Positions 6,023 through 12,260 of a stretch of 24,541 nt of DNA are shown here, in pieces; position 1 is the stretch's first letter, and every line of letters begins with the position of its first letter. The DNA lies in assembly GCA_937124525.1 (NCBI GenBank), contig CAKZLA010000509.1, positions 1 through 24,541 of the forward strand, given 5' to 3'. The notes beneath the pieces are model-generated. The model was not told where the DNA came from, searched no databases, and saw only the letters and a list, made by a program, of their open reading frames with translations. The position numbers and the translations under genes were made by a program. The stretch is from an uncultured Desulfobacterium sp. Its GTDB lineage: Bacteria; Desulfobacterota; Desulfobacteria; Desulfobacterales; Desulfobacteraceae.

Positions 6023-8571
6023 AAAAAAAGATCCTGTTGTTGACCATCGGTCTTATCTGTCTGTCATCGCTGGCCTTTGCCCAGACCTCCCCTGGCACAC
6101 CATTGGGGGAGGATAAAAATACCCAGGTGCCTTTTGAACAGGCGGTTGACGCTGCCAGGAATGCCCTGGATGTTCTGGAAAAAGACCTACAGGGCGAAAA
6201 GAAAGTCCTTGAAGAGGTCATGTCACAGCAACAGATCTACCGAACCCAGATAAACTCCCTTCGAAATTTTCTCATTGTGCCTGACATCAGCGCCTCCGTC
6301 ATTGGAAAAGGTCTGGAAGAGGTGGATATTTCAACCACCCTGATTCAATCAAAAATTCAGAAAGCAGGGGAAAGAGATGCAAAAATACGCCAGACCCTCT
6401 CTTCGGTACAGGAGAAAATACTATTAATCGAAGAAAGGATCAAAGAAGCGGAATCCATGCCCAAGGACAGTTCGGATAGAGGAGGCATGGACAGAGCCGC
6501 TGATATTAAAAAATTCAAAGCCTATCGCTCCCTTCTGGAAAAACAAAAAAAAGTGCTGTCAAGCCTCCTGGATGTCGTGGCTTTGGAAATAAAAGCTGAA
6601 GATGATCTGTTCACCGCATTTAAAGAGATTCGGGTGACTTTGAAAAAGGAACTGAAAGACAGAAAGGGAGATCGGTTGTTCCAACGCAGTGAAATTGAAT
6701 TGAAAACTTTTTTCCCCATCACTGTGGGAAAAGAGATCGTTTTTTCATTTTCAACGGTGGAGCAGTTGTTTACCCAGGATCAGCTGATTTTGAGATGGGC
6801 GCAGTTCCAGGAACAGAAGAATTTAAGAAGTGTTGTGATCCTGGTGGTGTTTTTTCTGAGCTGCTTTTTTTTCAGAAAGGGCCTGCACCTGCTCAGAAGT
6901 AAAGAGGCATACACCAAAATAATTTCCCGGAGAACGGGCTATCCCCTCATCGTATTTGAGGATGCTCTTTTTTATATTTTCTTTATATGCCTCACCATCA
7001 CATTGTCCAAGACCACTTTTTATGTGGTGTTCCCGGACATGATAAATTTTTTTAAAACCTTATTCATCGTTTTTTTATGCACAAAAATTGCTGCGGATTC
7101 CATTCGTCTCATCGTCAATGAAAAGGGGCATGTACTTTTCAATGCCCTATTTAAATGGAAAAATGCCTTTGTTCTGGGGGTGAGGCTGTATGCCCTTGTG
7201 TATCTGTTGTTCTATCGGTTTTTGTCTCTGGAAAGCGCGCTTCTGGTGCTCATCAAGATTGCTTCAGAAGTGGTGCTTGTGGTGGGGGTTTTTCTGTTCT
7301 GGAAAGATTTTGCAAAGACAAAATCACCCACGGATGCCATGGAGGTCAAGCTGCTGAACATTTGGTCAAAGGTGGTGGTGGTTTCAGGGCTTTTTGCGGA
7401 AATTTCAGGGTATGGCTATTTCTCCGCCTGGTGGTACATCTCCTGGGGGATTTCCATTGTGATCCTGTGTGTCTGTGGCTTGCTGTTTTATTCCATGAAG
7501 GACATTGATCGTAAATTCAAGGATAAATTTGAGTCCGACTCCCGACAAACCCATGGGGTCTTTTCTCCCCTGTACTGGATTTTTTCCAACGCCATTTATT
7601 TTATCATCATAGCCTTTGCAGTAACCGGGGTGTCTTTTTCCTGGGGAATCAGCGATCTGTTCTTCCCCTTTTTGTGGGAGACATTCAACCGGAAATATGT
7701 GATGGGCAATTTTCAGTTGAGCATCGCAGGGTTTGCATACTGGTTGCTGGTGATTTTTGCCACATATTTGTTCACCCGCATGTGGAAACGATTGATGACG
7801 AATCATATCTTAAAACAGAGCGGACTCTCCACCGGGGCAAAGGAGTCTGTCACCACCATTTCCGTCTATATTATCTGGGGGCTTGGCATCCTGATCAGCC
7901 TGAATGTTTTTGGTCTTGACACCACTTCTCTCACCGTTGCCTTTGGTGCCCTGAGCATTGGGCTTGGGTTTGGTCTGCAAAATATATTCAGCAATTTCAT
8001 CAGCGGCTTGATTCTGTTGTTTGAACGCCCCATCCAGGTGGGGGATGTGGTGGAGGTGGCAGATACCTGGGGGGAAGTGAAAAAAATAAATGTCCGGTCA
8101 ACCCTGGTTCAGACCTATACCAATGCCTCGTTGATTATTCCCAATTCAGAATTCATCAGCGCCAAGGTGGTCAACTGGAGCCACCAGGACCCTTACATAA
8201 GAAGGGATCTGCTGGTGGGCGTGGCCTATGGGTCGGACACCGAACTTGTGAAAAATCTGCTGTTAAAGGCGGCGGACACGGTGAAGGAAGTGTACTCTTA
8301 TCCCCGGAAACCCATGGTGCTGTTCCTTGATTTCGGGGCGAGTTCCCTTGATTTTAAATTGCGGTTCTGGTCCAGTATTGATGATTTTGTGACGGCCGAA
8401 AGTGCTCTGCGATTTGAGATTGACAGGCTTTTCAGGGAACATGATGTAGTGATTCCCTTTCCCCAGCAGGATGTTCATCTTATGGATGTTCCTCCGGGCT
8501 TGTTTCAGGGCAGGGAAAATACCACGCCTGAAAAAGAGGTTACGCATACCCCGCCACCTGAATCTCTGTAA
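6019..8571 (+). CDS. Large MscS-family mechanosensitive channel
   Basis: 850 residues. It begins with a signal peptide (MKKKILLLTIGLICLSSLAFA, cut before QTS), then a long periplasmic region of heptad-like helices (about 30-230), several hydrophobic membrane segments between about 270 and 620, and a C-terminal MscS module. The pore helix region (about residue 635 on) reads SLTVAFGALSIGLGFGLQN, followed by NFISGLILLFERPIQVGDVV and the beta domain with IIPNSEFI and VVNWSHQD, which are signature features of MscS. The layout is that of MscK/MscM-like members (usually 700-1100 residues), inner-membrane channels that open on hypo-osmotic shock. The start codon overlaps the activator stop (ATGA), so the two are probably translationally coupled. 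The regulator may control this gene or respond to the same stress. Confidence 0.92.
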   Translation: MKKKILLLTIGLICLSSLAFAQTSPGTPLGEDKNTQVPFEQAVDAARNALDVLEKDLQGEKKVLEEVMSQQQIYRTQINSLRNFLIVPDISASVIGKGLEEVDISTTLIQSKIQKAGERDAKIRQTLSSVQEKILLIEERIKEAESMPKDSSDRGGMDRAADIKKFKAYRSLLEKQKKVLSSLLDVVALEIKAEDDLFTAFKEIRVTLKKELKDRKGDRLFQRSEIELKTFFPITVGKEIVFSFSTVEQLFTQDQLILRWAQFQEQKNLRSVVILVVFFLSCFFFRKGLHLLRSKEAYTKIISRRTGYPLIVFEDALFYIFFICLTITLSKTTFYVVFPDMINFFKTLFIVFLCTKIAADSIRLIVNEKGHVLFNALFKWKNAFVLGVRLYALVYLLFYRFLSLESALLVLIKIASEVVLVVGVFLFWKDFAKTKSPTDAMEVKLLNIWSKVVVVSGLFAEISGYGYFSAWWYISWGISIVILCVCGLLFYSMKDIDRKFKDKFESDSRQTHGVFSPLYWIFSNAIYFIIIAFAVTGVSFSWGISDLFFPFLWETFNRKYVMGNFQLSIAGFAYWLLVIFATYLFTRMWKRLMTNHILKQSGLSTGAKESVTTISVYIIWGLGILISLNVFGLDTTSLTVAFGALSIGLGFGLQNIFSNFISGLILLFERPIQVGDVVEVADTWGEVKKINVRSTLVQTYTNASLIIPNSEFISAKVVNWSHQDPYIRRDLLVGVAYGSDTELVKNLLLKAADTVKEVYSYPRKPMVLFLDFGASSLDFKLRFWSSIDDFVTAESALRFEIDRLFREHDVVIPFPQQDVHLMDVPPGLFQGRENTTPEKEVTHTPPPESL

Positions 8572-8706
8572 CGCCTTAGCCCCGTCCCCCTGTTTTCATG
8601 ACAGATGATGCCCCTTTTTTAAATGAATTACTCATTTGATTTCAATGGATTTTTAGGGCAGTATGAACAAGTTGCAGGCATGAAGATTCACAAAGAATAG
8701 AATATG

Positions 8707-9016
8707 ATGGATACGGAACAAAAAGGAACACGACGTTCATGATCAAGGTGAGATAAAGAATGAAATTGATAAAATATGGGAAGTTTTCTGGACAGGGGGC
8801 ATTACCAACTCCCTCACCGTGATCGAGCAGTTTAAGTATCTCCTTTTCATAAAAGGGCTGGATGACAAGCAAAATGACCTGGAGGCAAATGCCGCGGTGC
8901 TGGGTCTGACTGCGGAAAAAATATTTGATGTGCATCAGCAGGATTTACGCTGGCACAATTTTAAACAAAAGGCAGCCCAGCAGATGTGTAAAACCAATTC
9001 AGTTGTTTTTATATGA
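8707..9016 (+). pseudogene. hsdM: hsdM remnant: 5' fragment of a type I DNA methyltransferase subunit
   Basis: In the frame of base 8726 the translation runs GEIKNEIDKIWEVFWTGGIT, then LTVIEQFKYLLFIKGLDD and later DLRWHNFK. This is the N-terminal helical region of HsdM (family pattern: WxxGGITNPLTVIEQxxYLLFxKxLDD ... DLRWxxFK). A plausible start, ATG at 8707 (MDTEQK), is out of frame with it by one base; removing one A from the A5 run at 8720-8724 would restore a single frame. Similarity stops near base 8985 and the frame ends at 9016, so the SAM-binding and NPPF catalytic parts are missing. The fragment cannot methylate DNA. It marks the left border of a decayed restriction-modification locus; the right border is an hsdR fragment beyond 11966. 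Confidence 0.75.
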
Positions 9017-9045
9017 AAGAGTAGGCACGCCTAATATTCTTTCAT
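9013..9045. repeat. Imperfect palindrome at the hsdM truncation point
   Basis: ATGAAAGA (9013-9020) pairs with TCTTTCAT (9038-9045), and inside them TAGGC (9022-9026) pairs with GCCTA (9029-9033) around AC. It spans the end of the hsdM fragment and lies just before two longer repeats. It could be a cruciform site involved in the rearrangement, or a transcript hairpin; there is no T-run after it to make it a normal terminator. Confidence 0.45.
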
Positions 9046-9050
9046 GCTTC

Positions 9051-9099
9051 GTTGTGGGCAGGCCCAGGTCCCCCATGCGGTCTGCCCGTGGCAGTTATA
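9051..9099. repeat. Direct repeat unit 1 with internal hairpin
   Basis: A unit of about 49 bases beginning GTTGTGGGCAGGCC and ending GTGGCAGTTATA. It is repeated 94 bases further on with a handful of substitutions and one length change. Within it GGGCAGGCC (9056-9064) can pair with GGTCTGCCC (9079-9087): nine pairs with one G-U and a 14-base C-rich loop. It lies between the hsdM remnant and the DUF262 gene. It has no coding role that I can see. Confidence 0.65.
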
Positions 9100-9144
9100 T
9101 GAAACTCAGTCCAATGAATTGTAATAACTGGAGTTTCGATACTT

Positions 9145-9192
9145 GTTGTGGGCAGGCCAGATCCCCAATACGGTCTGCCTGTGGCAGTTATA
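9145..9192. repeat. Direct repeat unit 2 with internal hairpin
   Basis: Second copy of the unit at 9051-9099. GGGCAGGCC (9150-9158) pairs with GGTCTGCCT (9172-9180). The outer C to T change still allows a G-U pair, so the fold is kept in RNA. It ends about 36 bases before the DUF262 start codon, so it would sit in or just upstream of that transcript's leader. Confidence 0.65.
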
Positions 9193-9228
9193 AACAAACA
9201 AGAACCATACTGTGATCAAGGATAGTCA

Positions 9229-10377
9229 ATGATCGACAACAAAGAAAATACAGACCTGTACCAAGAAATTTCTGTTGAAAAAGAGGATGAGGGCTCTGGT
9301 TCTGAATTGATGAGAGAGCCGTTCAATCCTTCTTTGATCAATATTAAAAGAGAATTTCCCACAATTTCAAATTTGGTTGATATGCTGAAACAATCCCCTT
9401 CAGAAATCGATTTGAATACAGAATTTCAAAGAAGCGGAAATTTATGGTCTCAGGTTCAGCAAAGTCGATTGATTGAATCAATTTTAGTAAAATTTCCATT
9501 ACCTTCATTTTATTTCGATGCTGGTGATGAAAATGAAAACAAATGGCTGGTTGTGGATGGTTTACAAAGGTTGAATTGTTTTCAAAAATTTATCGTGGAT
9601 GGAACCCTTCCGTTGACGGGACTTGAATTTTTGAGAAAACTCGAGGGTAAGCACTATTCAGGTCTTGATAGACCGCTTCGACGAATTATCGACCAAACCC
9701 AGGTTACGGCGTATATCATCAATCCAGGCACACCAACAAATGTAAAATACAATATTTTCAAACGTATAAATACCGGTGGGCTGGTGCTCGAATCACAGGA
9801 AATCAGGCACGCCCTTCATCAGGGCGTGCCGTCAACGTTCATCAATGATCTTGCAACGCTTAAAGAATTCAAAGATGCTACAGATAAAAAAATAAGTTCC
9901 CAAAGAATGCTCGACAGAGAATTTGTAAATCGGTTTGTTGCGTTTTTTATTACCCCGCCCAAGGATTATGTCCCGGATCTGGATTCATTTTTGAATGATT
10001 CCATGGAAAAAATTGCTGCCAAAACGGCAGATGAACGGAACTTCATCAAAGAATCATTTCGAAAATCCATGGCCGCTTCAACACAAATTTTTGGAAACTG
10101 GAATTTTAGAAAAGCGGATTTATATCCTGAAAGAAGAAAACCAATCAACAAATCAATTTTCGAAATTTGGGCAGTTGCATTGGCCAATTTATCAGACAAT
10201 GAGAGAGAAATGTTAATTGAAAAACAAGATCTGGTACTCAATAAATTTGCAAATTTATGTAAAACTGATCAAAGTTTCATTTCATCGGTCTCCCAAACAA
10301 CTGGTGACAAAGGCCGAGTCATGAATCGTTTTTCAAAAATCCAACAACTTATCAAAGAGATTATAGATTCTAAATGA
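9229..10377 (+). CDS. DUF262 (GmrSD-N/ParB-like) protein of a putative defence cassette
   Basis: 382 residues; ATG follows AAGGAT seven bases upstream. The N-terminal DUF262 domain is clear: IDLNTEFQRSGNLWSQVQQS (about 60-79), LIESILVKFPLPSFYF, and WLVVDGLQRLNCF (about 106-118), which carries the DGxQR motif used for nucleotide binding and hydrolysis in DUF262 proteins such as GmrS/BrxU. VKYNIFKRINTGGLVLESQEIRH is the second conserved block (FxRINTGG). The C-terminal third is helical with no HNH (DUF1524) motif, so this protein has the sensor or NTPase half but no recognisable nuclease. Its stop overlaps the start of the ATPase gene (ATGA). Base composition is more A+T rich than in the flanking genes, suggesting acquisition. 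A role in phage or plasmid defence is inferred from the family and location. Confidence 0.85.
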   Translation: MIDNKENTDLYQEISVEKEDEGSGSELMREPFNPSLINIKREFPTISNLVDMLKQSPSEIDLNTEFQRSGNLWSQVQQSRLIESILVKFPLPSFYFDAGDENENKWLVVDGLQRLNCFQKFIVDGTLPLTGLEFLRKLEGKHYSGLDRPLRRIIDQTQVTAYIINPGTPTNVKYNIFKRINTGGLVLESQEIRHALHQGVPSTFINDLATLKEFKDATDKKISSQRMLDREFVNRFVAFFITPPKDYVPDLDSFLNDSMEKIAAKTADERNFIKESFRKSMAASTQIFGNWNFRKADLYPERRKPINKSIFEIWAVALANLSDNEREMLIEKQDLVLNKFANLCKTDQSFISSVSQTTGDKGRVMNRFSKIQQLIKEIIDSK

Positions 10378-11461
10378 TTGATAACATCAGTGTCCACAAT
10401 TTTAAATCCCTTAAGAATATCGATCTGCCTTTGAAGAGGCTGAATATTTTTGCTGGCCTAAACGGCATGGGGAAAAGTTCTTTAATTCAAGTGCTACTGC
10501 TGCTGAAGCAAAGCCAGCTGATTCGTACAGAAAAGTTGGCGCTCATGGGAGACCTTGTGAATATCGGCAAAGGGTCCGATGCGTTGTATCAATTTGCCGA
10601 AGATGAAGTGGTGCGCTTTTCTCTTCAATGGAATGAAGAGCTGCTGGCGACCTATGAATTTGAATGGATGCCGGAAAGCAACTATTTAGATCTTCTACCA
10701 TCATCTAACTCTGAAACAGATATCACCCCATATATTGAGAATCTTCAATACATATCGGCGGATCGTCTCGGCCCATCCATTATGTACGACATGTCCCAAA
10801 ATTCCGTGAAACAAGGAAATCTTGGAGCTTTGGGAGAATATACCTCCCATTTTCTTTCAGTGAACGGTAATCGATTGAAAATAGACCTCCAACGGTTACA
10901 TCCTTCTATGGCATCTCCATTTCTTGTAAACCAAGTCAATGCCTGGCTTGGAGAGTTATCACCCGGGGTTAAAATCAACGTAACGGAACTTCCCGGTGCT
11001 GATAAAATGTTATTGACATATGAATTTGAGCTCCAAAAAGGAAGAACTCAACCATTTAAACCAACCAATGTAGGATTTGGCATCACATGCGTGCTTTCCA
11101 TTGTGGTGGCGTTGCTGATTGCAGAAAAAGATCAACTGATCATTATAGAAAATCCGGAAGCCCATATTCATCCGCGAGGACAGGCTAAATTGGGTAAACT
11201 CATGGCACTTGCGGCATCCTCAGGTGCCCAGATTATAGTTGAAACCCACAGTGATCATGTCATCAACGGTATTCGAGTCGCTGTTAAAGAGGGGTTATCC
11301 CCCCCTCAGAAGCTCAATGCCCATGGTTTCATAAAGTGACAACGGAAACAGAGCAATATACTGATATTATCAACATTTTAATTGATAAAAACGGAGAATT
11401 GAGTGAATATCCGGAAGGCTTTTTGGAAGAGTGGAACAATCAGCTGTTGAGGTTGATATGA
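10374..11461 (+). pseudogene. AAA ATPase with DUF3696 tail, broken by a single-base frameshift
   Basis: The first 321 codons encode an AAA15/OLD-like ABC-type ATPase: HNFKSLKNIDLPL, Walker A GLNGMGKSS (about 28-36), a signature-like region NVGFGITCVLS, Walker B LIIIENPEAHIHPRGQ (about 255-270) and the IIVETHSDHVINGIR H-loop. The frame stops at 11339. The -1 frame then continues WFHKVTTETEQYTD to EEWNNQLLRLI and ends at 11461, which is exactly the DUF3696 tail of this family. Its TGA overlaps the next ATG (11458), as expected for an intact operon. One missing base near 11324 (CATGG for CATTGG) or in the C7 run 11299-11305 explains it. It may be a mutation, a sequencing error or ribosomal frameshifting. 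The product pairs with the DUF262 protein. Confidence 0.8.
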
Positions 11462-11973
11462 ATCCCAAGGGTAAATTGAGAGATCTTGTTTTTAACGAGC
11501 TAACCGAATTTCCCTTGGCTGCCGATTTCAATGAGGCTTATCAACGTGTCGTTCAGTTTTTACAAACTTACAAGGCAAGGCCATCCATTTTTGACAAAAG
11601 AATACGACTTGAAAATCATATTGGGGAACTTCAATTGACTGATGCCGTTTCGTTACAAGACTTTTGCAAAAATCCCAAAGGGCGTACCGTTGGTGCCCTG
11701 CTCTTAGGGCTTGGGAGGCACCCGTTTATTGATCCCAATACCCCGGAAGAAGATCAATATCTTGAGAAAAACTATACACTGAATCATCATGAAGATAAGA
11801 AAGAGGCCATCGGATTGGCCTCGGCTTACTTAAGCGATACCATTTGTATTGGATTTGAATCAGAAAATTTTTGGCAACGAATTGAACATGAGTTAGAAAT
11901 TTCAGACAATGGTCTGGGGTCGAATTTTGAGAAAGTTTTATCCGTATCAAACCCCAATCATTTCGTTCCTTGA
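11458..11973 (+). CDS. Third protein of the DUF262/ATPase cassette, unknown function, probably C-terminally truncated
   Basis: 171 residues from the ATG at 11458, which overlaps the TGA of the reading frame restored from the ATPase; the frame is also open from 11431. I recognise no named domain. Visible features are a helical N-terminus (KLRDLVFNELTEFPLAADFN), GALLLGLGRHPFIDPNTPEED and EAIGLASAYLSDTICIGFES ahead of FW, a mixed alpha/beta pattern. It ends in SVSNPNHFVP at the point where hsdR-like sequence starts in another frame, so the original C-terminus was probably lost in the same rearrangement. Position and overlap suggest it is the effector or an accessory subunit of the cassette; that is inference. 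Confidence 0.6.
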   Translation: MNPKGKLRDLVFNELTEFPLAADFNEAYQRVVQFLQTYKARPSIFDKRIRLENHIGELQLTDAVSLQDFCKNPKGRTVGALLLGLGRHPFIDPNTPEEDQYLEKNYTLNHHEDKKEAIGLASAYLSDTICIGFESENFWQRIEHELEISDNGLGSNFEKVLSVSNPNHFVP

Positions 11974-12206
11974 AAAAGACCCCCAATACCAGGAAATTGC
12001 CACTGCCTGCATTGAGGCGGAGAAGTCCATTTGCCACTTGCCCCACCATGATGAATGCCATTGATCACAATAAAACCAAAGACGGTGCCCGCCTTTTTAC
12101 ACCAGGGCGTTTTGATTTCATTATTCGTGATGAAACCCATCGCTCAATTTACCGGAAATATCAGTATATTTTTACCTACTTTGACGGGTTCCTGCTGAGT
12201 CGCTAA
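11966..12206 (+). pseudogene. hsdR: hsdR remnant: two non-adjacent pieces of a type I restriction subunit joined out of frame
   Basis: Piece one (11966 to about 12029) reads FLEKDPQYQEIATACIEAEKS, like the extreme N-terminus of HsdR proteins of the DUF4145 type. Piece two (12030-12206, another frame) reads FATCPTMMNAIDHNKTKDG, then RLFTPGRFDFIIRDETHRSI and YRKYQYIFTYFDGFLLSR before the stop. This matches the helicase motif II region of HsdR (family pattern TYPTMMNAID ... FTPGHFDLIIxDExHRSIYxKYxxIFxYFD). Several hundred codons between them, including the nuclease and Walker A, are gone, as is everything after motif II. It is non-functional. With the hsdM fragment near 8707-9016 it brackets the DUF262/ATPase cassette in hsdM-to-hsdR order. 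Confidence 0.75.
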
Positions 12207-12260
12207 AAATCCATTAATTCAGTACCCATTAACCGTTTTTTCATTTAAAGAGGAAACAAC

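What the first reader, a model, noticed from the sequence alone, without database searches (positions are those of the whole stretch)
8707..12206. DUF262-ATPase(DUF3696)-unknown cassette standing inside a gutted type I restriction locus
The sequence shows an hsdM 5' fragment on the left and two hsdR pieces on the right, in native order and on one strand. Between them are three overlapping genes: a DUF262 protein with DGxQR, an AAA15-type ATPase, and an unrecognised third protein. DUF262 NTPases and OLD/AAA15 ATPases are well known in anti-phage systems. The three-gene set with no recognisable nuclease, embedded between hsdM and hsdR, is the best candidate here for an under-described defence module. 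Either the cassette was carried inside an hsd operon and outlived it, or it replaced hsdS and most of hsdM and hsdR.
Basis: partly seen in the sequence, partly recalled or inferred. Interest (0 to 1): 0.75.

Follow-up and report, generated by a model that had tools for sequence, protein, structure and literature searches.

The report
Decayed Menshen defence system, known kind
A close relative of a sulfate-reducing bacterium carries the broken remains of a known three-gene phage-defence system (Menshen) between the remains of a restriction enzyme's genes; it is an ordinary, already described kind of system in a mildly unusual position.

Summary
The three genes are nsnA, nsnB and nsnC of Menshen, a published anti-phage system (PADLOC: NsnA E 8.6e-127, NsnB 5.8e-99, NsnC 3.1e-49). 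An intact, colinear copy, 90% identical in DNA, stands at the same chromosomal site in Desulfocicer vacuolatum. In the window the system is decayed: nsnB is frameshifted before its DUF3696 tail, and nsnC stops after its N-terminal part, losing 30 of the 36 most conserved positions of its subfamily. The flanks are an hsdM 5' scrap and two hsdR scraps of one type I restriction family, in native order. nsnC homology ends where the hsdR scrap begins, so nsnABC probably once lay directly upstream of hsdR. nsnB follows nsnA at 47 of the 50 best nsnA places, but hsd genes were seen within 10 kb at 3 of 50, a lower bound. D. vacuolatum shows no credible hsd trace at the site. A broken member of a known kind.

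The parts
8620..8694 (+). upstream element shared with D. vacuolatum (one copy found here, two at the same site there)
   Evidence: blastn 79% to L001:4666-4739, and 82% over 8621-8675 to L001:7340-7394; alignments; core pattern, up to 3 mismatches, twice in the D. vacuolatum genome, 0 for the reversed control
8747..8992 (+). hsdM 5' scrap (HsdM residues 4-85), no usual start codon in frame
   Evidence: HsdM_N PF12161 E 6.2e-8; 76-79% identity to HsdM of L131/L129; PADLOC MTase_I E 2.3e-17
9054..9192 (+). two copies of a dispersed palindromic repeat between hsdM scrap and nsnA
   Evidence: repeats D1/D3; 49 matches to window 9030-9200 in the D. vacuolatum genome, a lower bound (40 of 506 candidates scored)
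9229..10377 (+). nsnA, DUF262 (GmrSD_N) protein, full length, 382 aa
   Evidence: PADLOC NsnA E 8.6e-127; PF03235 E 9.8e-17; 90.8% aa identity to the D. vacuolatum copy
10374..11339 (+). nsnB ORF, AAA15/OLD-like ATPase, frameshifted near its 3' end
   Evidence: PADLOC NsnB E 5.8e-99; AAA_15 E 1.6e-25; 4-nt overlap with nsnA
11327..11461 (+). nsnB DUF3696 tail, in another frame
   Evidence: frames; alignment to L001; PF12476 on residues 309-361 of the intact relative
11458..11973 (+). nsnC, N-terminal part only (about 168 of 285 codons)
   Evidence: PADLOC NsnC PDLC03895, positions 2-165 of 281, E 3.1e-49; DNA homology to D. vacuolatum ends at 11963
11963..12031 (+). hsdR N-terminal scrap (HsdR residues 6-28)
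   Evidence: 74% identity to HsdR of L131, E 4.2e-7; 44% to L129, E 2.4e-4
12021..12197 (+). hsdR internal scrap around the DEAH-box motif (residues 470-528 of L131)
   Evidence: 68-69% identity, E 9.3e-22 and 4.9e-21; ResIII PF04851 E 1.6e-5; PADLOC REase_I E 1.6e-7

Best explanation
This is a decaying Menshen (NsnABC) anti-phage system of a Desulfocicer-like bacterium, standing among remains of a type I restriction locus at a site that differs between relatives, between an MscS-like channel gene and pyruvate kinase (both named by eye). That core claim carries the confidence given. As a second step (my odds about 0.7) it once stood directly upstream of hsdR in a block hsdM-(hsdS)-nsnA-nsnB-nsnC-hsdR; later losses removed hsdM beyond codon 85 and hsdS, fused the first part of nsnC to the start of hsdR and cut hsdR to two scraps, and nsnB frameshifted. 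In an intact system I infer that NsnA (DUF262, ParB/Srx-like NTPase) and NsnB (ABC-type ATPase with a DUF3696 tail) sense the phage and control NsnC, whose conserved C-terminal domain is the likely effector or effector contact. That domain is missing here, so this copy is very probably inactive. Shown: gene identities, breaks, synteny, hsd scraps. Inferred: ancestral order, mechanism, inactivity.
For: PADLOC matches for all three. nsnB directly behind nsnA at 47 of the 50 best nsnA places. Intact copy at the same site in D. vacuolatum, colinear over window 9196-11963 at 89.9%. dN/dS 0.13, 0.10 and 0.13 for nsnA, nsnB before the shift and nsnC before the break, i.e. selected until recently. 30 of 36 positions conserved in at least 90% of 104 NsnC proteins lie after residue 163, in the lost part. 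Both hsd scraps match the same operons, L129 and L131. nsnC homology ends at 11963, hsdR homology starts at 11951 (L129) or 11963 (L131).
Against: I found no genome with intact hsdM-hsdS-nsnABC-hsdR. hsd genes lie within 10 kb at 3 of 50 nsnA places; only 20 of 50 have 5 kb on both sides and one search did not list all its matches. D. vacuolatum shows no credible hsd trace at the site (best E 0.011, on the other strand and with a stop), so hsd may have joined in the window's lineage alone. The nsnB frameshift sits in a homopolymer run and could be an assembly error. Activity was not testable.
Confidence: 0.92

Rival explanations
1. A new three-gene defence module, distinct from known systems, that replaced hsdS and most of hsdM and hsdR.
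For: No Pfam family at E<=10 in the window's third protein; no PDB or viral fold match at E<=0.001 for a confident model of its relative.
Against: All three match Menshen models; the nsnA-nsnB pair recurs at 47 of 50 places.
Confidence: 0.03
2. Menshen was resident at the site and a type I system joined later, or the reverse, without ever forming one hsdM-S-nsnABC-R block. (This competes only with the second step of the best explanation, not with its core.)
For: D. vacuolatum has Menshen at the same site without credible hsd traces; its left neighbour there is a different two-gene module, so the site exchanges modules.
Against: hsdM and hsdR scraps flank nsnABC in native order on one strand, match the same operons, and nsnC runs directly into the start of hsdR.
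Confidence: 0.25
3. The shortened set still works: a shortened NsnB and the first part of NsnC act as a reduced or regulatory form.
For: Low dN/dS up to the breaks; NsnA and the ATPase motifs are intact.
Against: The lost parts hold DUF3696 and 30 of 36 conserved NsnC positions; low dN/dS is explained by recent breakage.
Confidence: 0.04

Closest known systems
Menshen (NsnA-NsnB-NsnC), PADLOC-DB models PDLC03877, PDLC03878, PDLC03895
   Same: All three components, gene order, overlap of nsnA and nsnB; NsnC subfamily PDLC03895.
   Different: This copy is broken in nsnB and nsnC and stands between hsd scraps.
D. vacuolatum nsnABC at L001:7753-10840
   Same: Same site, colinear, 89.9% DNA identity.
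   Different: Intact; preceded by a two-gene module instead of hsdM; no credible hsdR trace behind it.
Type I restriction loci with an embedded defence gene (EcoprrI: prrC inside a type IC operon; PMC3874165, one passage seen)
   Same: A defence gene placed within an hsd operon.
   Different: PrrC is a single anticodon nuclease held by the restriction complex; no such coupling is shown for Menshen.
Type I hsdM-hsdS-hsdR operons of L131 and L129 (hsdS named by eye)
   Same: Same HsdM and HsdR family as the scraps (hsdM 76-79%, larger hsdR scrap 68-69%).
   Different: hsdR follows hsdS directly, with nothing between.

Membership tests
Menshen | NsnA: DUF262 protein of the Menshen subfamily | tested here: met
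   PDLC03877 E 8.6e-127, positions 22-384 of 385; DGLQR motif
Menshen | NsnB: AAA15-type ATPase part | tested here: met
   PDLC03878 E 5.8e-99, positions 1-303 of 345; AAA_15
Menshen | NsnB: DUF3696 tail in frame | tested here: not met
   tail present but in another frame; in frame in D. vacuolatum (PF12476). So this is filed as a broken copy, by descent, not as a working member
Menshen | NsnC, full length | tested here: not met
   only positions 2-165 of 281; the intact relative matches 2-281 of 281
Menshen | Order nsnA-nsnB-nsnC on one strand, tightly packed | tested here: met
   same order in L001
Menshen | Protection against phage | not testable with these tools
   no assay
Type I restriction-modification | complete HsdM | tested here: not met
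   only residues 4-85 of 487 found
Type I restriction-modification | HsdS | tested here: not met
   five HsdS proteins (three annotated; two named by eye) give no match to window 8560-12260 below E 0.67
Type I restriction-modification | complete HsdR | tested here: not met
   two scraps, residues 6-28 and 470-528
PrrC-like accessory of a type I operon | functional coupling to the Hsd complex | not testable with these tools
   position only

The most novel reading that the evidence does not exclude
Some Menshen systems are true accessory parts of type I restriction operons (hsdM-hsdS-nsnABC-hsdR), sharing their promoter and acting as a second line when restriction fails, in the way of PrrC; the window is a fossil of such an operon.
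Probability: 0.12. Interest if true: 0.5.

Novelty: new member of a known kind. Interest (0 to 1): 0.2.

Why it matters
It settles that the cassette is Menshen, gives an intact relative at the same site (D. vacuolatum) for tests, and points to the C-terminal domain of NsnC, modelled with confidence but without a found fold, as the part whose function is open. The hsd embedding, if found intact elsewhere, would tie Menshen to restriction the way PrrC is tied.

Full report
What is there. The middle genes are Menshen: NsnA (9229-10377, PADLOC E 8.6e-127), NsnB (10374-11339, E 5.8e-99) and NsnC (11431-11973, most likely from the ATG at 11458; E 3.1e-49 over positions 2-165 of 281). Pfam sees GmrSD_N/DUF262 in NsnA, AAA_15 in NsnB and nothing in NsnC. 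The review PMC10952713 (passages seen) lists Menshen among DUF262 systems, with a predicted OLD nuclease partner, and says that mutating or deleting the DUF262 gene abolished resistance.

The intact relative. A scan of genome contigs with an alignment of 14 NsnC proteins gave one locus, in Desulfocicer vacuolatum DSM 3385. The same neighbours stand there in the same order: a sigma-54 type regulator, an MscS-like channel, then nsnA, nsnB, nsnC, then pyruvate kinase and two-component genes (neighbours named by eye). DNA identity is 89.9% over window 9196-11963, against 78.8-88.9% for the six other long aligned blocks. Synonymous divergence is 0.35 (nsnA), 0.39 (nsnB before the shift) and 0.54 (nsnC before the break), against 0.58-0.90 for six flanking genes. 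This hints at exchange of the cassette but proves nothing. dN/dS is 0.13, 0.10 and 0.13. Left of nsnA, D. vacuolatum has a two-gene module (251 and 599 aa) instead of hsdM.

How it is broken. nsnB is frameshifted in a homopolymer run near 11.30 kb; the DUF3696 tail, in frame in D. vacuolatum (PF12476), lies in another frame here. An intact copy exists in D. vacuolatum. The run makes an assembly error possible. nsnC loses homology at 11963 and stops at 11973. In an alignment of 104 NsnC proteins (chosen by me from the 120 listed of 237 found, mostly full-length), 36 positions are at least 90% conserved; 6 lie at or before residue 163 of P0002 and 30 after it, in the lost part.

The hsd scraps. 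Relatives of the larger hsdR scrap were found in 6 of 389 genomes of the class at E<=1e-8; three stood out at 70% identity. L129 and L131 show hsdM, hsdS (named by eye) and hsdR in that order with nothing between hsdS and hsdR; in L130 the contig ends inside hsdR. Against L131 the window keeps HsdM residues 4-85 (8747-8992) and HsdR residues 6-28 (11963-12031) and 470-528 (12021-12197); no HsdS match is better than E 0.67. nsnC homology ends where hsdR homology begins. The simplest reading is an ancestral hsdM-(hsdS)-nsnABC-hsdR block with several losses. Between its channel gene and pyruvate kinase D. vacuolatum shows no credible hsd match; the best is E 0.011, on the other strand and with a stop.

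Recurrence. In the class, 60 of 389 genomes, D. vacuolatum included, have an NsnA match at E<=1e-40 (the weaker ones may be other DUF262 proteins). I took the 50 best places (E up to 1.1e-100). nsnB follows within 250 nt at 47 of 50; at 3 of these the contig ends inside nsnB or at its end (L075, L078, L089). Of the other three, L092 has an nsnB match 298 nt downstream, just outside my limit, while L067 and L077 have none nearby. The next gene is 230-345 aa long at 37 of 47. By my profile of this NsnC subfamily it is NsnC at 7 of 50 places; many others begin with a similar 'NELS' stretch by eye, which I did not test. hsd genes lie within 10 kb at 3 of 50: G053 (nsnA without nsnB between hsdS and hsdR), G051 and G259. 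This is a lower bound: 20 of 50 places have 5 kb on both sides, and one search did not list all its matches. In print, the E. coli study PMC10121019 (passages seen) notes that a type I R-M hotspot occasionally holds other defence systems such as Druantia.

Mechanism. Inferred: NsnA and NsnB act as NTP-driven sensor and switch, NsnC as effector or effector contact. The D. vacuolatum NsnC has a confident model (mean pLDDT 95.6) with a C-terminal helix, four strands, helix arrangement. No solved or viral fold matched at E<=0.001. P0002 residues 181-278 resemble the end of PADLOC's CARF7-DUF2103 model, and 104 of 104 relatives match that model; Pfam's DUF2103 does not confirm it. In the window this domain is absent, so I expect no activity.

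Verdict. Observation confirmed; identity known; a decayed new member of a known kind. The position among hsd remains is real and mildly interesting; whether Menshen is ever functionally tied to type I restriction is open.

Noticed in passing
L001:4782-7333: In D. vacuolatum a two-gene module (251 aa, and 599 aa with a P-loop-like GYGKSH stretch read by eye) precedes Menshen at the same site; no PADLOC match at E<=0.01 or Pfam match at E<=1. The larger protein is found in 13 of 389 genomes of the class at E<=1e-10, itself included. Possibly an undescribed defence module.
   Followed up: partly
window 8620-8694; L001:4666-4739 and 7340-7394: A short upstream element stands before hsdM in the window and before both the two-gene module and nsnA in D. 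vacuolatum; its core pattern (up to 3 mismatches) occurs twice in that genome, both at this site. Perhaps a shared promoter, perhaps a seam for module exchange.
   Followed up: partly
window 9054-9192: Two copies of a GGGCAG...CTGCC palindrome; at least 49 related matches in the D. vacuolatum genome (40 of 506 candidates scored), so a dispersed repeat.
   Followed up: partly
P0002 residues 181-278 (NsnC C-terminus): Resembles the end of PADLOC's CARF7-DUF2103 model, which 104 of 104 NsnC relatives match; a possible link between Menshen and a CARF protein of CRISPR systems.
   Followed up: partly
L056 (G001:C41): D. vacuolatum carries a second nsnA-nsnB pair elsewhere, followed by a different third gene.
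   Followed up: no
L077:5608-15288 (G053): hsdM, hsdS (by eye), a lone nsnA-type gene, an AlbA-like gene (by eye) and hsdR in a row: a DUF262 gene inside an hsd operon.
   Followed up: no
P0015 (114 aa): A close NsnC relative in another contig looks internally deleted, so decay of NsnC may be repeated in this group.
   Followed up: no
L113:6762-7770: An hsd operon on a Chryseobacterium oryzae plasmid, matched by both scraps, has an HTH and a PIN-domain gene between hsdS and hsdR.
   Followed up: no
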